DNA of 64,000 nucleotides, taken from contig NZ_CP072800.1 in the NCBI RefSeq assembly GCF_017901155.1, positions 1,019,283 to 1,083,282 on the forward strand, in the 5' to 3' direction. Shown here piece after piece: positions 5,205-18,075 of the stretch. Source of the stretch: Candidatus Thiothrix anitrata (GTDB taxonomy: Bacteria > Pseudomonadota > Gammaproteobacteria > Thiotrichales > Thiotrichaceae). The notes beneath the pieces were generated by a model. That model did no database searches. It was not told the DNA's origin and worked only from the letters and a program-made list of their open reading frames with translations. A program made the translations under genes and the position numbers. Every line of letters starts with the position of its first letter. Positions within the stretch are counted from its first letter, which is position 1.

Positions 5205-6089
5205 TTACTGTTCAGGTGTGGCAGTTGGCGTTGCGGGCGTTTGTGCAAGGTTTGCCTCACCACGCTGATTCAGCGGATAGCTATTCGTAGGCCCCACAAA
5301 CGGCTGAATCAGCATCTTATCCAAACGTTCCCATTTCGGGTCACGAAACTGGTTAATGCCAATCGTCATGCCGTCGTGTCCATCGTCAGGCTGGGCACGG
5401 TACGTTCCCATCATACGATCCCAGATACTCAGATTAAAACCAAAATTGCTATTGGTTTCATGCGGATACCAAGAATGGTGTACGCGATGAAAATCCGGGG
5501 TGACGATCAATAAACGCAAGACCCGATCCACTGCTAACGGCATCCGCACATTGGAATGGTTAAACATTGCCAAGGAACTTAAAATGATTTCAAACAATAA
5601 TACCGCGACGGCAGGAACACCCAACGCCACAATAACGGTCGCCTTAATGCCAAAGGATAATAAAATCTCCAACGGATGAAAGCGTAACCCCGTGGTGACA
5701 TCAATATCCAAATCGGCATGATGCATCCGATGCAAACGCCATAACGTCGGTATCGCATGAAACATCACATGCTGCGCCCAAATAGTAAAATCCAGCACCA
5801 CAATGGCAATCAACACCGTCAGCCACAACGGCAAGTTGACGACTTGTAGCAAGCCCCAACCCTGACTTTCCACAAAGACTGCCAAGCCTACCGCCCCCGC
5901 CGGAACCACTAAACGGGTTAACAACGTGCCTAATGCAATCACCCCGAAATTATTTGACCAACGGTAAGCTTTGTTGACTGACAACGCCCGGCGGGGCGCG
6001 ACCCATTCCCATGTCGCCATAATGGCTAAAACACCCAACATCATTGCCATCCGAATAACCGGCTCTTGTTGCATTAACCAGTCGTACAT
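5205..6089 (-). CDS. Sterol desaturase / fatty acid hydroxylase family membrane protein
   Basis: This is a di-iron integral membrane oxygenase-type protein of 294 aa. The eight-histidine signature appears as QHVMFH, HRMHH and HRVHH, with further histidines in HPLEI and FNHSN. Hydrophobic segments cover about residues 13-30, 50-75, 85-110 and 145-170. The substrate cannot be told from sequence. The start ATG at 6089 has AAGG about 10 nt upstream. Its first roughly 100 codons are repeated, with about 94% identity, in the broken copy at 8565-8877. It appears to be a single-gene unit downstream of the TetR-controlled cassette. Confidence 0.85.
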   Translation of the reverse strand: MYDWLMQQEPVIRMAMMLGVLAIMATWEWVAPRRALSVNKAYRWSNNFGVIALGTLLTRLVVPAGAVGLAVFVESQGWGLLQVVNLPLWLTVLIAIVVLDFTIWAQHVMFHAIPTLWRLHRMHHADLDIDVTTGLRFHPLEILLSFGIKATVIVALGVPAVAVLLFEIILSSLAMFNHSNVRMPLAVDRVLRLLIVTPDFHRVHHSWYPHETNSNFGFNLSIWDRMMGTYRAQPDDGHDGMTIGINQFRDPKWERLDKMLIQPFVGPTNSYPLNQRGEANLAQTPATPTATPEQ

Positions 6090-8564: not shown

Positions 8565-8877
8565 AGCACCACAATGGCAATCAACACCGTCAGCCACAAC
8601 GGCAAGTTGACGACTTACAGCAACCCCCAACCCTGACTTTCCACAAAGACTGCCCCAAGCCTACCGCCCCAGCCGGAACCACTAAACGGGTTAACAACGT
8701 GCCTAACGCAATCACCCCGAAATTATTCGACCAACGGTAAGCCTTGCTGACTGACAACGCACGGCGTGGCGTGACCCATTCCCACGTCGCCATAATGGCT
8801 AACACACCCAACAGCATTGCCATCCGAATAATCGGCTCTTGTTGCATTAACCACTCGTGCATTATCGGTTTTACCTT
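8565..8877 (-). pseudogene. Truncated, frameshifted copy of the desaturase gene (direct repeat copy B)
   Basis: This copy encodes the first roughly 100 residues of the desaturase from the ATG at 8862 (MHEWLMQQEP). After LVVPAGAVGL a 2-base insertion (GCCCC for GCC) shifts the frame, and the similarity stops at 8565. The six amino-acid differences from copy A are all conservative (for example Asp/Glu, Val/Ile, Met/Leu). This suggests two alleles that diverged while functional before one was broken. It abuts the end of the DUF2063 gene, which may mark the ancestral position of the desaturase gene. Confidence 0.88.
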
Positions 8878-8878
8878 T

Positions 8879-9628
8879 TTAAGTTGTCCCCAGCAGTACT
8901 TGCTGCGAATGCAGTTGTTGCATGATCTGTACAGCAAATGCCAGTAGTTGCGTGGGTTCAGGGTGTTGCATTTCCTGCGCGAGTTGCGCAACCGTTGCTT
9001 GCGTATCCAAGCCTTCTTGTAATAACTGCAACAGGCGGGCAGTAACCGCATTTACTTCCACAAAATCCACCTTCCCTTGCGTATTGCGTAACAAAACAAG
9101 ATGGGTGGGTTCTGGTTCATCAGGCAGGCATTCAGGGCTGATACGGTGAACTGGGTATTGGTAGCTTTGCAGTAACATGACCGGGTTCACGTCCCAGCTT
9201 TTATGGTTTAACTCAGCATTTTCTGTGTCCAATGGTCGCCAGCTAACGTCGGCTTCATCCAGCATCAACGGTATTTCCACCCATTCGTAATGCGCCAACT
9301 CCAGTAAAAACGGGAAGGATTTGTGCAAAGGTAGAGTTGCAAAACTTGCCTGCAACCATTGCATAAATTCAGCCGGGATTTCCCGGAAATACGGCGTTTG
9401 GCAGGCATGATCGGCGTAAAACTGTCGCACCACCCCGTTCCACTGCTTGTCATCCAAAATGCTGCGCATGACAGGGAAACAACCACTGAGAAAGTCTTCC
9501 ACGTTATTGAACAACAGTTCCACGTAAACATCCATGCGCTGCGGATTCACCCCGGCGGGAGCTGGGTTGGCTTGTGGGTTGCGCAAATGAGCGGCAAAGG
9601 TGTGTTGGTACTGTTCAGTGGTGTTCAT
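8879..9628 (-). CDS. DUF2063 protein, BufC/HvfC-like MNIO partner (locus 1)
   Basis: This 249-aa protein has the DUF2063 N-terminal domain (YQHTFAAHLRNP, RMDVYVELLFNNVEDFLSGCFPVM). In MNIO systems such proteins bind the precursor peptide and present it to the DUF692 enzyme. A C-terminal helical domain (VTARLLQLLQEGL) follows. The start overlaps the DUF692 stop in an ATGA, so the two are coupled. It has about the same length as the second DUF2063 protein in the window but looks only distantly similar, so a recent duplication is unlikely. Confidence 0.85.
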   Translation of the reverse strand: MNTTEQYQHTFAAHLRNPQANPAPAGVNPQRMDVYVELLFNNVEDFLSGCFPVMRSILDDKQWNGVVRQFYADHACQTPYFREIPAEFMQWLQASFATLPLHKSFPFLLELAHYEWVEIPLMLDEADVSWRPLDTENAELNHKSWDVNPVMLLQSYQYPVHRISPECLPDEPEPTHLVLLRNTQGKVDFVEVNAVTARLLQLLQEGLDTQATVAQLAQEMQHPEPTQLLAFAVQIMQQLHSQQVLLGTT

Positions 9629-10473
9629 GCGGTGTATTTCCTCTGCAAATGAGCAATTTGTTCCACTTCAGGAAGGAGTTCTTCCAACGGCGGGATATTG
9701 TAATCGCGCTCTAGCAAGGTGGGGTGTACCCCAAACTGCGCATAGGTGAAATCCAGCAAGTCCCACACCGGGTCAATGATGGCTGCGCCGTGAGTGTCGA
9801 TCAGCAAGTTCGGTTCTTGTTGGTAATGCCCTGCCATGTGCAGGTAAACCACCCGCTCTTTGGGTAATTGACGTAAAAAGGCGCAAGGGTCGTAAGCATG
9901 ATTGACGCTGTTGACGTAGACATTGTTGACATCCAGATGCAGCAGGCAATCGGCTTCTTCCAATACTGCATTGATGAACGTGGTTTCATCCATTTCACTG
10001 ATAGGAGCTTGCAGGTAAAACGAGGCGTTTTCAATACCGATGCGTTCCCCCAAAACATCCTGAACCTGACGGATGCGGGCGACAGTATGTTTAATCGCAT
10101 CCTCGGTAAACGGGATGGGCAGCAAGTCGTATAACTGCCCATGATCCGAACACCATGATAAATGCTCGGTATACAGTGGAATTTGATGGTCGCGTATGAA
10201 CTGCTTGAGTTTGCCCAGCAAATCCAGATTCAGCGGGTTTAAACCACCCAGCGATAAGGAAAGCCCGTGGCACACAAACGGGAAACGCTCCGTGAAAGCC
10301 CGCAGACGTTGGCTGCTAGTTTTATCCGTTCCGATCCAATTTTCAGGCGCTATTTCAAAAAAACGAATGCAGTCAGGAACATGGGTTTCCAAAGTTGCTA
10401 AGTGGTCACGGCGCAAGCCAAGCCCAGCACCGTAGAAACGTGGCATAGCTGTTGGAGTGAGGACTGTTTGCAT
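9625..10473 (-). CDS. DUF692 multinuclear iron oxidase (MNIO), BufB/HvfB-like (locus 1)
   Basis: This 282-aa TIM-barrel protein belongs to the MNIO family, whose studied members modify cysteines of ribosomal peptides using an iron cluster. Likely metal ligands appear in order: ENWIG, CHGLSLSLGG, YTEHLSWC, GIENASFYL, LHLDVNNVYVN, HMAGHY, IDTHGAAI and LLERDYN. ATG at 10473 has AGGAA upstream. The DUF2063 gene follows with a 4-bp overlap, and the likely substrate gene is divergent at 10627. The exact cysteine chemistry (thiooxazole, oxazolone-thioamide or other) cannot be read from sequence. Confidence 0.9.
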   Translation of the reverse strand: MQTVLTPTAMPRFYGAGLGLRRDHLATLETHVPDCIRFFEIAPENWIGTDKTSSQRLRAFTERFPFVCHGLSLSLGGLNPLNLDLLGKLKQFIRDHQIPLYTEHLSWCSDHGQLYDLLPIPFTEDAIKHTVARIRQVQDVLGERIGIENASFYLQAPISEMDETTFINAVLEEADCLLHLDVNNVYVNSVNHAYDPCAFLRQLPKERVVYLHMAGHYQQEPNLLIDTHGAAIIDPVWDLLDFTYAQFGVHPTLLERDYNIPPLEELLPEVEQIAHLQRKYTA

Positions 10474-10626
10474 GATGATTCCTGTTGCGGATTATGATTA
10501 TCGTCTATGCTTGTTACGTATCGACGTGATGATTGGATGCACTTTAAAATTTTTTTACGGAAATTGCATCTAAGTTTAAACCTGCTGCGTACATGATGAC
10601 GAACCACAACAAAAGGAGCGTTCACG

Positions 10627-10905
10627 ATGAAATCTAACAAACTTTCCCTTGCCCTGTCTTTGGGTACGATTATTCTGGCGGGTAGCGCACTCACCGCGTG
10701 CGGCACTTCCCCTTTTTCTGCCAAAAGTGCTGACACCACAACAACCGCAAAATCAACGAATGGTTCTTGTGGTGCAAAAAAGGATGGTAGCTGCGGAGCC
10801 AAGAAAGACGGTTCTTGTGGTGCAAAAAAGGATGGTAGTTGCGGAGCCAAGAAAGAGGGTTCTTGCGGCGCGAAAAAGGATGGTAGCTGCGGTACGAAAA
10901 AATAA
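10627..10905 (+). CDS. Putative MNIO-modified lipopeptide precursor with six GSCG repeats
   Basis: This 92-aa precursor has a signal sequence (residues 1-25) ending in LTAC-G, a good lipobox, then a Thr/Ala/Ser linker (26-44). Residues 45-92 are six tandem octads of the form [N/D/E]GSCG[A/T]KK. It resembles HvfA-type proteins with EGKCG repeats that accompany DUF692/DUF2063 genes and take part in copper binding. The DUF692 and DUF2063 genes are divergent, 150 bp away, and AAAGGAG precedes the ATG. A lipobox is unusual for this type and predicts an envelope-anchored modified peptide. The substrate role is inferred from context and repeat type. Confidence 0.78.
   Translation: MKSNKLSLALSLGTIILAGSALTACGTSPFSAKSADTTTTAKSTNGSCGAKKDGSCGAKKDGSCGAKKDGSCGAKKEGSCGAKKDGSCGTKK
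10759..10902 (+). repeat. Six tandem 24-bp repeats (three 48-bp dimers) encoding GSCGAKK octads
   Basis: Octads 1-2 and 3-4 form an almost exact 48-bp dimer: odd octads use GGTTCTTGTGGTGCA, even octads GGTAGCTGCGGAGCC. The third dimer (octads 5-6) has more changes (TTGCGGCGCG, GGTACG). The alternating codon use shows growth by doubling of a two-octad unit, so copy number may vary between strains. Confidence 0.88.
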
Positions 10906-11001: not shown

Positions 11002-12426
11002 ATGCCTGAACAGACCGTGCTGATTGTTGACGGCAACCCTGCCGAACGCGAACGTCTGGAATTGACCCTGCTGCGGATGGGGCTGGATACCTTGACCGCG
11101 CCTTCTATTGCCGATGCCGTTACGCAAGCAGCTCGTTACCCGCCGTTCTTGTGTCTGACGGAACTGACGTTGCCGGATGGTGACGGGCTGGCCTTGTTGC
11201 AACAGATGCACCAGCAGCAACCGCCCGTGCCCGTGGCTTTCATCAGTGGTAGTGCCACGGTCAATTCGGCGGTGGCGGCGATGAAAGCCGGAGCGTTGGA
11301 TGTCATTCCCAAACCACTGGAGCTGGCACGTTTGCGCGAATTGCTACAAACCGTGCTGCACCCCAAACCCAGCAAGGCACGCAAAAGTGCGGTTTCCGCC
11401 ACATCTGACACACATCAAAGCAGCATCATCGGCAATGCGCCGATCATGCAGCAATTGCAGGTAACCATCCGCAAGCTGGCACGTGGGCAAGTTCCCGTTT
11501 ACATTCACGGCGAATCCGGTAGCGGCAAGGAACGGGTGGCACACGCAATCCATCAGCAGGGAGCGCGTGCCAATGCGCCATTCATCCCGGTCAACTGCGG
11601 AGCGATTCCTGAAAACTTGATGGAAAGCGAATTTTTTGGGCACAAAAAAGGCAGTTTTACTGGCGCAGTCACGGATAAGCAAGGGTTGTTTCAAGCAGCA
11701 CACAAGGGCACGCTGTTTTTGGATGAAGTTGCTGATTTGCCGCTGATCATGCAGGTCAAGCTGTTGCGTGCCATTCAGGAAGGTGCGGTCAAACCAGTCG
11801 GTGGATTGGAGGAAATTCCGGTGAATGTGCGCATCCTCAGTGCTACCCACAAGGCGCTGGAAGATGAAGTGCTGGCGGGGCGTTTCCGGCAGGATTTGTA
11901 TTACCGCCTCAATGTTATCAAGCTGGATGTACCACCGCTGCGGGAGCGTCAGGATGATATTTTGCTGCTAGCTGATGTTTTCCTGCAACGCATTGCCGAA
12001 CGCTGGCAAACCGCCTCCATTGTTTTGTCACCCGCTGCCCGCGCTGCGTTGCTGACTTACACGTTCCCCGGCAATGTGCGTGAACTGGAAAATATTCTCG
12101 AACGCGCCTGCACCCTGTGTGATGATGACCTGATTGAAGTGAAGGATTTGCGTTTGCAGGCGATGCGTTTTGATCAGCCTGCCACGGTTACCGTCCAGCC
12201 GATTCCGCCAGTGGAGGAACAACCGCAGGCAATCGAAGGTGACTTGCTGCCGGATGATGTGTGGAATCCGGAAGACGAGGATGCCGAACGCGATCTGGTG
12301 CTAAGAGCACTGGACTATACCCGCTGGAATCGCACGCGTGCGGCTCGCATCCTCGGCATGACTTTCCGCCAATTGGGTTACCGTATCCAGAAATACGGGC
12401 TGGATGAATCGGAGGAGGGATTGTAG
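11002..12426 (+). CDS. Sigma-54 activator with atypical receiver domain (NtrC family)
   Basis: This 474-aa protein has a receiver-like domain (1-120), an AAA+ sigma-54 activation domain (about 140-370) and a Fis-type helix-turn-helix (NRTRAARILGM). Walker A GESGSGKE is present, and the sigma-54 contact loop is GSFTGA instead of GAFTGA. The receiver has lost key acidic residues: the phospho-acceptor position reads LTELTLPDGDG (Glu for Asp) and the first acidic pair is VDGN. It may therefore act without phosphorylation. No kinase gene adjoins it. It lies directly upstream of a secreted repeat protein with a sigma-54 promoter, its most likely target. Confidence 0.9.
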   Translation: MPEQTVLIVDGNPAERERLELTLLRMGLDTLTAPSIADAVTQAARYPPFLCLTELTLPDGDGLALLQQMHQQQPPVPVAFISGSATVNSAVAAMKAGALDVIPKPLELARLRELLQTVLHPKPSKARKSAVSATSDTHQSSIIGNAPIMQQLQVTIRKLARGQVPVYIHGESGSGKERVAHAIHQQGARANAPFIPVNCGAIPENLMESEFFGHKKGSFTGAVTDKQGLFQAAHKGTLFLDEVADLPLIMQVKLLRAIQEGAVKPVGGLEEIPVNVRILSATHKALEDEVLAGRFRQDLYYRLNVIKLDVPPLRERQDDILLLADVFLQRIAERWQTASIVLSPAARAALLTYTFPGNVRELENILERACTLCDDDLIEVKDLRLQAMRFDQPATVTVQPIPPVEEQPQAIEGDLLPDDVWNPEDEDAERDLVLRALDYTRWNRTRAARILGMTFRQLGYRIQKYGLDESEEGL

Positions 12427-14855: not shown

Positions 14856-15413
14856 CTACTTGCACTTGATCCAGTTAAAACTGTCGCAATGGTGGTATTG
14901 CGGGTCACAAACTGCATTCTGGCCAATGGTCATGGTTTTGACTGACAGGTTATTGGCCTTTGAGTAACTAACTAGCGTGTTGTAACCGTTCACCTGACAA
15001 AAGGCTTTGGCCGCTCCTTGACCGCAGTCATTTTCAAATACCCGACACCAGTCTAAACGATGCCCCTTGTGCATGGGCTTGGTAAATGTCACTTCCTTTT
15101 TCACACATTGAATGGATGAGAACGTATCGCACCGATGATGTTGTGGGTCACAGATTGAATTCTGACCAATAGTCATGGTTTTCACACCGGGATGGTTTCG
15201 CTTTACCCATGAGGCGGCTTTTAAATGGCCTTTAGCCTGACAGTAGGCATTGGCAGCACCCTGACCACAGTTATTTTCAAATATCCGACACCAGTCTAGG
15301 GCGTAACCCTTATGTTTTGGATTATTGTAATTAACCGTAGTATCAGCCGAACCAATCATCGGATGGCACAGCAAAAATATTCCTAAGATAGGTAAAAGTT
15401 TCTTTACTTTCAT
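14856..15413 (-). CDS. Secreted protein with two tandem cysteine-rich domains
   Basis: ATG at 15413 begins MKVKKLLPILGIFLLC, a signal peptide cleaved near GSA-DT; GAGG lies upstream. The mature part is two copies of a domain of about 75 residues with matching motifs: LDWCR-F-N-CGQGAA-A-CQ, then VKTMTIGQN, then CDPQ-H-CD and a final C. Each copy has six conserved cysteines, likely three disulfides. The same pattern (GQxCD near a C-terminal cysteine) is familiar from secreted bacterial proteins without known function. An internal duplication is clear. No adjacent partner is obvious. Confidence 0.7.
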   Translation of the reverse strand: MKVKKLLPILGIFLLCHPMIGSADTTVNYNNPKHKGYALDWCRIFENNCGQGAANAYCQAKGHLKAASWVKRNHPGVKTMTIGQNSICDPQHHRCDTFSSIQCVKKEVTFTKPMHKGHRLDWCRVFENDCGQGAAKAFCQVNGYNTLVSYSKANNLSVKTMTIGQNAVCDPQYHHCDSFNWIKCK

Positions 15414-15624
15414 TGCATTAATCCTCGCACATAAATCGATATACGGGCTTGATGCGGTATTTGGTTTCAAGGGCATCGTGCCCGAACCTCTTGGCTGGCA
15501 ACTGATCTTGATAATCTGCTACCTGCCTCTTAACTATAGTCCATGGGAAAACGCTCTGGCAATTCCCCAATATGGATGTTTTTGCCAAAACTGACAAATT
15601 GGACTAATTCACGGAATCTTGAAA

Positions 15625-15730: not shown

Positions 15731-16195
15731 TTACCGCATTAAACGAAGGATCAAAGGATAATCCGCTGCGAATTTGCCGGGGCCAAACACAAACACCGTC
15801 CAAAGCATTACGCCCCACACGACGTGTTGCCAGAACCCCCCCGCCCCTTCAATCGTGAATAGGTACGGATAAGAAATCACCGCCACAATATTAAACACGA
15901 ACAATCCCAAGGCGGCTGGGCGAGTCAACAGCCCTACTGCCAGCAACACGGGCAACACCAATTCTGCCGCTGTTCCCAAATACGCCGCCAATTCTGGTGA
16001 CAAAATCGGCACAACGTATTCATCCTCAAACAGCGAAAGCGTACTCGACCAGCTTTTCACCTTCGTCAAACCGGAGGCGAAAAATGCCCACGCCACATAT
16101 AGGCGGAAACCCAATAGGGTCAACGGTTTCAAAAAACTATCCAAAGGCCAGCAGTCGCCCATCAGGAAGCCGGGTAAAGTAATGGGATTTTTCAT
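15731..16195 (-). CDS. DoxX family membrane protein, BufD-like (locus 2)
   Basis: This 154-aa protein has four hydrophobic segments and the DoxX pattern (RLYVAWAFFASGLTKVKSW, YLGTAAELVLPVLLAVGLLTRPAA, FWQHVVWGVMLW). DoxX proteins often end bufferin operons and are thought to help electron or thiol traffic at the membrane. It is the last gene after the DUF2282, DUF692 and DUF2063 genes, 25 bp downstream. Confidence 0.85.
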   Translation of the reverse strand: MKNPITLPGFLMGDCWPLDSFLKPLTLLGFRLYVAWAFFASGLTKVKSWSSTLSLFEDEYVVPILSPELAAYLGTAAELVLPVLLAVGLLTRPAALGLFVFNIVAVISYPYLFTIEGAGGFWQHVVWGVMLWTVFVFGPGKFAADYPLILRLMR

Positions 16196-16220
16196 GGTGA
16201 ACTCCTTACGTTATTCATTC

Positions 16221-16994
16221 TTAAACCGTTATTTCAAACGATCGCATCCAGCCCTGCCGGATCGCTGCCATCAACAAAGCAGGCAACTGTTCCTGAAATC
16301 GCCCCGCCAGTTCGGGCAAGGTTTCCCGCTGCTGCACAGCGTTGAGGAATTCCCAGTCTCGCTTGTCCAGTGGGACCTGCTGTAACCGCCGTCCCTTCCG
16401 CCATACCAGTACATACGTTTGCTGTTGTAGCTGGATGCGTTCCAACGGCAATTTTTCGGGGTGATCTTCCGGCTGATGCGCCAACCACACCGCATGAATC
16501 GCGTAATCCGACGGCAACAAGTGGGCGGAATCGGGCGTATGCAGCGTCAAACTTTCCTGCTGCACTTCATCTAAGGTCATCAGTTGGGCAAAGTCGGATG
16601 CGGGCTGGTTGACCGCATTCCATGCCTGATGCCGCGCCCATTCCAGCCGCGCCATATCGGCTATCCACTGCATATTGAGGAGTGCGGGGTGCTGCTGCAA
16701 AAAATTCGCAAATCCATCCCCGTATTCCGCAAGGAACGGGCGGGTGGGTGGCGATTGGTCAACATAACGATCACTGGCTGCCTCAAAAAACGCATCCCCC
16801 AGCAATTGTTGGCACACGGGATACAGCGAGCCGAGGTATTGCAGCAAAATGCCGTGGACACTGTTGCGGTAAATGCCGATTCGTTGCGCCGCATCCAGTG
16901 CGCCGTGCGGTTTGACCAAGACGGCTGCCGCGTCGCGCTTGTCACGATCGAAAATAGCCTCAATAAAACGGTGTTGGAGTTCAGGCAAGGACAT
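16221..16994 (-). CDS. bufC: DUF2063 protein, BufC-like (locus 2)
   Basis: ATG at 16994 starts MSLPELQHRFIEAIFDRD; the gene overlaps the end of the DUF692 gene by 14 bp. About 257 aa: an N-terminal DUF2063 domain (AAQRIGIYRNSVHGILLQYLGSLYPVC) and a C-terminal winged-helix-like part (LDKRDWEFLNAVQQRETLPELAG). In bufferin systems BufC binds the precursor and docks with the MNIO enzyme BufB. A longer in-frame start at 17054 would run far into the DUF692 gene and is rejected. Confidence 0.88.
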   Translation of the reverse strand: MSLPELQHRFIEAIFDRDKRDAAAVLVKPHGALDAAQRIGIYRNSVHGILLQYLGSLYPVCQQLLGDAFFEAASDRYVDQSPPTRPFLAEYGDGFANFLQQHPALLNMQWIADMARLEWARHQAWNAVNQPASDFAQLMTLDEVQQESLTLHTPDSAHLLPSDYAIHAVWLAHQPEDHPEKLPLERIQLQQQTYVLVWRKGRRLQQVPLDKRDWEFLNAVQQRETLPELAGRFQEQLPALLMAAIRQGWMRSFEITV

Positions 16995-17802
16995 GGGCTT
17001 GCACTTCCGTCGCTTTGTGGGCTTCTGCCAGCAATATGTCCAGCTCCGGCACATTATTATCCCACTCGATCAGGGTGGGGACTGCACCGAAACGCCGGAT
17101 AGCTGTTGCGTATAATTTCCAAACCGCATCACTAACTGGGTAGCCGTGCGTATCCAGCAAGTGCGTGCCACGATCTTCGTAGCCAGCCAAGTGCATTTCC
17201 CGCACCCGCTCTACCGGAATGGCGTTCAAATAAGCCAGCGGGTCAAAATCATGGTTGCAGGCACTGACGTAAATATTGTTCACGTCCAGCAAAATGTCAC
17301 AATCCGCCTCTTCCGCCACCGCACACAAGAAATCCCATTCGCTCATGGCTGATTGCTGGTATTGCAGGTAGCTGGAAACGTTTTCGATCACCAACCTGCG
17401 CCCTAGTATGTCCTGCGCTTGGCGGATACGTTGCGCGGCATGGTGGATAGTTTCATCGGTATAAGGCAACGGGATCAGGTCGTGTGTGACCAGCCCGTGA
17501 ACCGATGTCCAGCACAAATGGTCGGAAACCCACGCAGGGTTCACCCGCTCCACCAGTGCTTTGACACGGTTAAAATATTCGGTATCCAGCGGGTCGGTTG
17601 AGCCTAACGACATGCCAACCCCGTGGAACGTCAGCGGATAATGTTCCGCAATTTCGAGCAAATAATCCTGCTGCACACTACCGGGCAGCAGGTAGTTGTC
17701 GGTTAAGATTTCCAGCCAAGGGATGGGCGGCTTGCTGTCCGCAATCGTGTCGATGTGCTGGAAACGCAAACCAATGCCACAACCTTGAACTGGATGATTC
17801 AT
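16981..17802 (-). CDS. bufB: DUF692 multinuclear iron oxidase, BufB-like (locus 2)
   Basis: This 273-aa MNIO enzyme shows GIGLRFQHID, LEILTDNYL, FHGVGMSLGS, WVSDHLCWTSVHG, VIENVSSYLQY, LLDVNNIYVSACNH, HLAGYED, LLDTHGYPV and LIEWDNNVP, the ordered His/Asp/Glu ligands of the family. It lies 3 bp after the DUF2282 precursor gene and overlaps the DUF2063 gene, so the three are surely co-expressed. By family knowledge it would convert cysteines of the precursor to thiooxazole-type copper ligands. Confidence 0.92.
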   Translation of the reverse strand: MNHPVQGCGIGLRFQHIDTIADSKPPIPWLEILTDNYLLPGSVQQDYLLEIAEHYPLTFHGVGMSLGSTDPLDTEYFNRVKALVERVNPAWVSDHLCWTSVHGLVTHDLIPLPYTDETIHHAAQRIRQAQDILGRRLVIENVSSYLQYQQSAMSEWDFLCAVAEEADCDILLDVNNIYVSACNHDFDPLAYLNAIPVERVREMHLAGYEDRGTHLLDTHGYPVSDAVWKLYATAIRRFGAVPTLIEWDNNVPELDILLAEAHKATEVQAHVLA

Positions 17803-17805
17803 GGC

Positions 17806-18075
17806 TTAACCTTTCTTTTCCACGATAGTACCGCCAGTAATTTTTTCGCAAGTGCCTTTCGGTACTTTGATCCATTCATTCGGGTCATTGTCCACTTTGG
17901 CTTGAGCGGCACACGCATGACCGTTTGCACCACAATCATTCATACCTGCTTTGACGATGCCGGAACATTTTTCCATTTCCATCTTTTTTTCTTCGCCTGC
18001 TGACAACGTGCCGGAAGCGGCTGCCATACCCAATGCCATTAATGCTGCTGCCATTACTTGTTTGTTCATGTTCAT
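17806..18075 (-). CDS. bufA1: DUF2282 bufferin precursor, BufA1-like (locus 2)
   Basis: This 89-aa precursor has a signal peptide ([20 protein letters not shown], cleaved near LSA-GE) and the DUF2282 core: [25 protein letters not shown], then [15 protein letters not shown]. The four cysteines match those of bufferin 1, a copper-sequestering RiPP modified by BufB/BufC. AAGGAG precedes the ATG. It heads the bufABCD-type operon. A short inverted repeat lies about 42 bp upstream. No sigma factor/anti-sigma pair, which often accompanies such operons, is encoded nearby. Confidence 0.9.

What the first reader, a model, noticed from the sequence alone, without database searches (positions are those of the whole stretch)
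10627..10905. Lipobox-bearing MNIO precursor with six Cys octads that grew as 48-bp dimers
The signal ends in LTAC-G, which predicts a lipid-anchored modified peptide, whereas known HvfA/BufA precursors carry ordinary signals. The six GSCG[A/T]KK octads alternate between two codon versions, showing expansion by doubling. A membrane-anchored multi-site thio-modified peptide would be new as far as I know.
Basis: partly seen in the sequence, partly recalled or inferred. Interest (0 to 1): 0.7.

Follow-up and report, generated by a model that had tools for sequence, protein, structure and literature searches.

The report
Lipid-anchored Cys-repeat peptide precursor
A sulfur bacterium of the Thiothrix group encodes a small, probably membrane-anchored peptide with six cysteine repeats that is likely altered by a neighbouring iron enzyme and probably made under envelope or metal stress; peptides of this kind are already known, but this repeat type and its wiring are an unusual variant.

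Summary
10627-10905 encodes a 92-aa precursor with a canonical lipobox (LTA|C) and six GSCG octads. The first two 48-bp dimers differ at 2 of 48 bases; the third fits only by codon alternation. hvfB and hvfC (MNIO and partner) diverge from it. Nine of 16 genomes of the genus carry an orthologue; nine of nine keep the lipobox. Five lie beside hvfBC. Seven, including all six not directly downstream of hvfC, carry a TGCATCYA-N15/16-CGTA promoter motif with at most one mismatch. The motif also precedes hvfB, bufA, a soluble EF-hand HvfA, msrPQ and an ECF sigma gene. Best reading: a lipidated, HvfBC-modified, probably copper-binding peptide of an ECF envelope-stress regulon; modification, lipidation and copper binding are inferred. 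'Would be new' fails: a 2025 preprint shows a triacylated, MNIO-modified EGKCG peptide (NedA), and about 16% of Buf2 bufferins have predicted lipoprotein signals. What is left is a variant: Ser-Cys octads, two precursors with different destinations on one hvfBC, and similar precursors beside MNIOs in three delta/Polyangia MAGs. Caveat: the assembly's only lspA match is broken across frames.

The parts
10627..10905 (+). 92-aa precursor: signal peptide, lipobox Cys25, SPF-containing linker, six GSCG octads
   Evidence: no Pfam or NCBIfam match at E 0.1
10627..10698 (+). 24-aa lipoprotein-type signal peptide (...SALTA)
   Evidence: lipobox kept in 9 of 9 genus orthologues
10699..10701 (+). Cys25, predicted lipidated N-terminus of the mature peptide; +2 is Gly (no Asp at +2 in any of 9)
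   Evidence: sorting rule recalled
10762..10809 (+). 48-bp dimer 1 (octads 1-2)
10810..10857 (+). 48-bp dimer 2 (octads 3-4), 46 of 48 identical to dimer 1
10858..10905 (+). third pair (octads 5-6 with stop), diverged
10613..10618 (+). AAGGAG ribosome-binding site
   Evidence: read
10565..10591 (+). ECF-type promoter motif TGCATCTA-N15-CGTA of the precursor gene
   Evidence: function inferred
10515..10541 (-). ECF-type promoter motif TGCATCCA-N15-CGTA of hvfBC, back to back with the precursor's
   Evidence: function inferred
9625..10473 (-). HvfB-type MNIO (DUF692), 282 aa
   Evidence: NF003818 403 bits, cut-off 360; PF05114; PDB 3bww relative
8879..9628 (-). HvfC partner (DUF2063, RRE), 249 aa
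   Evidence: NF050145 286 bits, cut-off 142; PF09836 and PF22106
18149..18175 (-). same promoter motif ahead of the bufferin operon
17806..18075 (-). BufA, DUF2282 bufferin precursor
   Evidence: PF10048
16981..17802 (-). BufB MNIO, the only other MNIO found in the genome at E 1e-20 with the window HvfB
   Evidence: NF050167 375 bits, cut-off 310
16221..17054 (-). DUF2063 partner of the bufferin operon
   Evidence: PF09836; HvfC model below its cut-off
15731..16195 (-). DoxX protein of the bufferin operon
   Evidence: PF07681; HvfX model below its cut-off

Best explanation
The gene encodes a precursor that HvfBC modifies in the cytoplasm at some or all of its six GSCG cysteines (expected chemistry: 5-thiooxazole, -4 Da each). 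It is exported by Sec, lipidated on Cys25 by the lipoprotein pathway, and probably sent to the outer membrane. There the sulfur-rich tail would hold copper or a similar thiophilic metal. It is one output of an ECF sigma regulon that also makes hvfBC, a soluble EF-hand HvfA, the bufferin operon, MsrPQ and a thioredoxin-fold (TlpA-like) protein. One hvfBC pair would thus serve two precursors with different destinations. Shown here: gene, lipobox conservation, linkage, shared promoter motif, excess of synonymous change between octads. Inferred: modification, lipidation, sigma assignment, localisation, metal and function. My estimates: lipoprotein 0.9, HvfBC substrate 0.75, copper 0.6.
For: Lipobox in 9 of 9 genus orthologues; the first Cys comes only at about residue 52-55 in the three ordinary-signal relatives checked. 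hvfBC beside it in 5 of 9: divergent in G000 and G014, directly downstream of hvfC in G003, G007 and G008. Motif TGCATCYA-N15/16-CGTA: 9 sites in 3.5 Mb against 0 for the reversed control, and 103 against 4 over 16 genomes. In the window genome 8 of the 9 lie just ahead of a gene: sigma, DUF3047, hvfB, this gene, bufA, EF-hand HvfA, msrP, thioredoxin-fold; the ninth lies antisense inside an ORF. Orthologues: 5 exact, 2 with one mismatch, starting 62-68 bp before ATG; the 2 without it (G003, G008) sit directly downstream of hvfC. GKCG octads in G003 and G008 and mixed octads in G007 tie GSCG to the Lys-Cys type. Published: FonBC accepts A, R or T at the Lys position and fully modifies DGKCG (PMC13097082). 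Three delta/Polyangia MAG loci have a lipobox, GSCG repeats and an MNIO directly downstream. Lgt and LolB are present.
Against: No mass or lipid data. Ser at the Lys position is not among the variants in the sections I read of PMC13097082. The precursor misses the NCBIfam HvfA model. Four of 9 orthologues are unlinked to hvfBC. An HvfB-type MNIO occurs in 15 of 16 genomes of the genus, so co-occurrence alone says little. The only lspA match in this assembly is split across frames with stops inside, while the 14 other genomes with a match among the 16 searched (10 of the same genus) show no stop inside; whether that is an assembly fault or decay is not known. AlphaFold2 gives no confident fold (mean pLDDT 46.8).
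Confidence: 0.7

Rival explanations
1. A lipid-anchored Cys-rich peptide that binds metal or takes up oxidants with unmodified thiols, like a small membrane-bound metallothionein; HvfBC acts only on the EF-hand EGKCG precursor.
For: Lys-to-Ser change at the position that contacts the enzyme in the published FonB model (PMC13097082); 4 of 9 orthologues away from hvfBC; the genome has a KCG precursor that passes the HvfA model.
Against: Adjacent to hvfBC in two different layouts; same promoter motif as hvfBC; MNIO directly downstream of GSCG precursors in three other loci; FonBC tolerates A and T at that position.
Confidence: 0.2
2. A secreted, not lipidated, HvfA: Cys25 is removed by signal peptidase I, or is kept as a metal ligand.
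For: Close paralogues in G013 have an ordinary ALA-S junction; lspA is broken in this assembly.
Against: Lipobox Cys and Leu invariant in 9 of 9 although positions around them vary; no stop inside lspA in the 14 other genomes with a match.
Confidence: 0.07
3. A repeat-bearing relic with no function.
For: Octad number varies from 2 to 6; no lipobox octad precursor found in 7 of 16 genomes.
Against: pN/pS 0.04-0.18 between octads in 8 of 9; conserved promoter spacing.
Confidence: 0.03

Closest known systems
NedA of Neisseria dentiae, a DAG-RiPP (PMC12636315)
   Same: MNIO and partner protein, Cys-Gly repeats, lipobox; same predicted logic
   Different: NedA has EGKCG repeats and demonstrated triacylation and -12 Da; here GSCG octads and no chemistry shown
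Oxazolin/captophorin HvfA, FonA, MmrA (PMC13097082 sections; PMC12538549 passages; PMC13419390 abstract only)
   Same: HvfB/HvfC-type enzymes next door; octad [D/E]GxCG; xPF after the signal in 8 of 9 orthologues, shared with HvfA proteins of this genus
   Different: Ser replaces Lys; the HvfA model is not matched; gene divergent from hvfBC
Bufferins BufA1/BufA2 (PMC12452194)
   Same: MNIO system; a bufferin operon lies 5-7 kb away under the same motif
   Different: no DUF2282 or BufA2 match in this precursor
Caulobacter sigma-F and Haemophilus RpoE2 regulons (PMC3511200 passages; PMC7907618 passages and section 29)
   Same: ECF control of MNIO operons together with a YedY gene (MsrP, equivalence recalled) or msrAB
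   Different: here inferred from a motif; two soluble precursors and one lipobox precursor

Membership tests
HvfA / Buf_EGKCG oxazolin (Lys-Cys captophorin) | repeated EGKCG motifs / match to NCBIfam HvfA model NF050137 | tested here: not met
   no NCBIfam match at E 0.1; motif is [N/D/E]GSCG; orthologues in G003 and G008 do have DGKCG
HvfA / Buf_EGKCG oxazolin (Lys-Cys captophorin) | encoded with an HvfB MNIO and an HvfC partner | tested here: met
   both equivalog cut-offs passed, divergent neighbours
HvfA / Buf_EGKCG oxazolin (Lys-Cys captophorin) | -4 Da (5-thiooxazole) per Cys | not testable with these tools
   needs mass spectrometry and NMR
DAG-RiPP (RiPP-lipoprotein hybrid) | lipoprotein signal with lipobox | tested here: met
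   by pattern, 9 of 9 orthologues; SignalP not available
DAG-RiPP (RiPP-lipoprotein hybrid) | diacylglyceryl/acyl groups on Cys+1 plus RiPP modification | not testable with these tools
   needs lipid labelling and mass spectrometry
DAG-RiPP (RiPP-lipoprotein hybrid) | lipoprotein maturation genes in the genome | tested here: inconclusive
   Lgt and LolB found; only lspA match broken across frames; Lnt not sought
Bufferin BufA1/BufA2 | DUF2282 or BufA2 model | tested here: not met
   no match
ECF-controlled MNIO regulon | promoter motif shared with an ECF sigma gene | tested here: met
   motif ahead of sigma, hvfB, this gene, bufA, EF-hand HvfA, msrP; that this sigma reads it is inferred

The most novel reading that the evidence does not exclude
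One HvfBC pair matures two precursors for different places, a soluble EF-hand EGKCG peptide and an outer-membrane-anchored GSCG octad peptide, both switched on by one ECF sigma factor. The Ser-Cys octad would be a distinct substrate class of MNIOs, arrived at separately in Thiothrix and in delta/Polyangia bacteria, giving a membrane-bound thiooxazole array that relays copper with its soluble partner.
Probability: 0.35. Interest if true: 0.6.

Novelty: new variant of a known kind. Interest (0 to 1): 0.42.

Why it matters
It adds a Ser-Cys motif to the probable substrates of HvfB-type enzymes and gives a natural pair (soluble and lipid-anchored precursor on one enzyme pair) in a genus of free-living sulfur bacteria. 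That makes it testable why a cell would anchor part of its copper-binding peptide pool. The shared promoter motif also offers a way to find precursors that lie far from their enzyme, which searches limited to MNIO neighbourhoods would miss.

Tried and rejected
Rejected: 'new kind' (NedA and the Buf2 lipoprotein predictions in print). Rejected: an enzyme change matched to Ser; the residue after the catalytic Asp (my mapping by motif) is Tyr in the window HvfB, but also in GKCG genome G008, and Phe in the HvfB of G007 and G010, both of which carry GSCG octads, so it does not follow the motif. Structure prediction of the precursor gave no usable fold. A tree of 15 HvfB proteins did not order the gene layouts: 5 of 12 inner branches, all pairs, are firm and 7 are open; of the four layout classes only the divergent pair G000/G014 forms one side of a branch (100/100), and the firm pairs G007/G010 and G004/G005 mix classes. 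A Thiothrix-copper-RiPP paper search found nothing. A search for 'RiPP lipoprotein', 'DAG-RiPP', 'lipidated oxazolin' and 'lipoprotein bufferin' found only PMC12636315. A search for Myxococcota with MNIO, lipoprotein and precursor terms found two papers: PMC12636315 (read in part) and PMC13174530 (listing only). A search joining bufferin, ECF sigma factor and MsrP gave no listed paper that I used. Supplementary data sets of PMC13097082, which may list GSCG 5-mers, were not readable here. No wider count in Myxococcota could be made: the search cannot be centred on a named locus.

Slips in my own scripts: one search lists five of six octads for G000 (regex; one search has all six). The EF_G000 reading starts one codon late, as do the EF-hand rows. 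In one search the start of L048 was set wrongly, so its site (exact) was missed.

Full report
The object. The window lies in a single-contig genome of 3.55 Mb. The ORF at 10627-10905 encodes 92 residues: a signal ending LTA, Cys25, a linker with SPF, and six octads GSCG[A/T]KK. Pfam and NCBIfam give no match. On the other strand hvfB (9625-10473) begins 153 bp away, followed by hvfC (8879-9628); both pass their NCBIfam cut-offs. A separate bufferin operon with its own MNIO lies at 15731-18075. A search of the genome with the window HvfB found these two MNIOs and no other at E 1e-20.

Repeats. The doubling claim is right for octads 1-4 (46 of 48 identical) and weaker for 5-6. Octad counts in G000, G014, G012, G010, G007, G004, G013, G008 and G003 are 6, 6, 5, 4, 6, 4, 4, 4 and 2. 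Octads are GSCG in six genomes (one octad ASCG in G010 and in G004), mixed GKCG/GSCG/ATCG in G007, and GKCG in G008 and G003. Since the EF-hand HvfA proteins of the genus also use KCG, I infer that Ser is the derived state. Octads differ mostly by synonymous changes.

Lipobox. All nine orthologues keep L-[TAS]-[AG]-C, with the Cys at residue 23 (G004) or 25, and G, S or N at +2. Two paralogues in G013 have ordinary signals and Lys-rich tails; one of them lies about 200 bp upstream of the lipobox gene. Two family-level relatives, G032 and G033, have EGKCG peptides with lipobox-like signals. A sample of 369 genomes of the class gave 3 matches at E 1e-5 including the window itself; of the other two, one is an ordinary-signal EF-hand HvfA and the other showed no Cys-repeat ORF in my listing. 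A scan of the genome collection kept 7 loci out of 77 pattern matches: three of the Thiothrix type (two titled Thiothrix, one Gammaproteobacteria MAG), three delta/Polyangia MAGs with lipobox and GSCG repeats directly upstream of an MNIO, and one ordinary-signal GKCG precursor beside hvfBC. The one MNIO scored from these MAGs (L100) falls below both the HvfB and BufB cut-offs, so separate origin of the GSCG form is plausible but not shown.

Linkage and regulation. Of the nine orthologues, two are divergent from hvfB (G000, G014), three follow hvfC in a cluster that begins with an EF-hand HvfA (G003, G007, G008), and four have no hvfBC in the stretch read (G004, G010, G012, G013; about 8 kb each side, but only 326 bp upstream in G010, whose hvfB is on another contig). 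In G012 a BufB-type MNIO, and in G013 a shortened BufB frame, lie 5-7 kb from the precursor. The nine are not independent: HvfB of G012 and G013 are nearly identical, and G000/G014 are a firm pair. In the window genome the EF-hand HvfA lies about 156 kb away and passes the HvfA domain model. The motif TGCATCYA-N15/16-CGTA occurs three times in the window against 0.01 expected, 9 times in the genome against 0 for the reversed control, and 103 times against 4 across 16 genomes. In the window genome 8 of the 9 sites lie just ahead of genes: an ECF sigma gene with an RskA-type anti-sigma, DUF3047 plus a VTT-domain gene, hvfB, this precursor, bufA, the EF-hand HvfA, msrPQ, and a thioredoxin-fold (AhpC-TSA, TlpA-like) gene; the ninth lies inside an ORF on the opposite strand. 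I did not map the 94 sites of the other genomes one by one. Among the nine orthologues 5 sites are exact and 2 have one mismatch, all starting 62-68 bp before the start codon; these seven include all six not directly downstream of hvfC, plus G007. G003 and G008, directly downstream of hvfC, have none. Shuffled upstream sequences reach one mismatch or better in 20 of 18000. Of 13 distinct EF-hand HvfA genes collected, 9 have an exact site and 2 more have one mismatch; L018 and L068 do not. Among 347 mechanical ORFs of 200 aa or more, real regulon members included, 7 have an exact site, 4 one mismatch and 4 two.

Prior work. PMC12636315 shows lipidated DybA and NedA and coins DAG-RiPP. PMC12452194 predicts lipoprotein signals on about 16% of Buf2 bufferins. 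PMC13097082 assigns 5-thiooxazole and maps FonBC tolerance: A, R and T accepted at the Lys position, F and E poor, DGKCG fully modified, some other motifs modified once. Sigma-F of Caulobacter controls two DUF2282/DUF692/DUF2063 operons and a YedY gene (MsrP by recall) (PMC3511200, passages). RpoE2 of Haemophilus controls msrAB and the DoxX/COG3220/DUF2063 cluster (PMC7907618, passages and section 29). The regulon inferred here is therefore of a known kind.

Weak points. Nothing chemical is shown. The lipoprotein call rests on patterns, not SignalP. The genome's only lspA match is broken across reading frames; of the 15 other genomes searched, 14 have a match without stops inside and one has none. 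Lgt and LolB are present. The function in copper handling is carried over from published relatives.

Verdict. The novelty claim is not: this is a Ser-Cys, lipobox-bearing variant of a known kind. Its most unusual aspect is that one enzyme pair seems to serve a soluble and an anchored precursor under one promoter class.

Noticed in passing
G000:C1:1525063-1525509 (L149): The genome's only match to lipoprotein signal peptidase is split across frames with stops inside; no stop inside in the 14 other genomes with a match. Assembly fault or decay is not known.
   Followed up: partly
L100, L101, L102: Delta/Polyangia MAG loci with lipobox plus GSCG-repeat precursors directly upstream of an MNIO; the one MNIO scored (L100) is below both the HvfB and BufB cut-offs.
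   Followed up: partly
L027 7444-7806; L030 7001-7324: GKCG paralogues with ordinary signals and long Lys-rich C-terminal tails; the first sits just upstream of a lipobox copy.
   Followed up: partly
G000:C1:1010989-1011015 (L105): ECF-type site ahead of a DUF3047 gene followed by a VTT-domain membrane protein gene; role in this regulon unknown.
   Followed up: no
window 8590-9051 (-): Frame containing the first part of what looks like a second copy of the membrane protein encoded at 5205-6089, ending early; perhaps a truncated duplicate.
   Followed up: no
window 14856-15476 (-): Protein with two similar Cys-bearing halves (LDWCR..ENxCGQGAA); only sub-threshold Pfam matches.
   Followed up: no
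window 11002-12426 (+): Sigma-54-dependent response regulator gene directly downstream of the precursor; the precursor's neighbours differ in the related genomes read.
   Followed up: no
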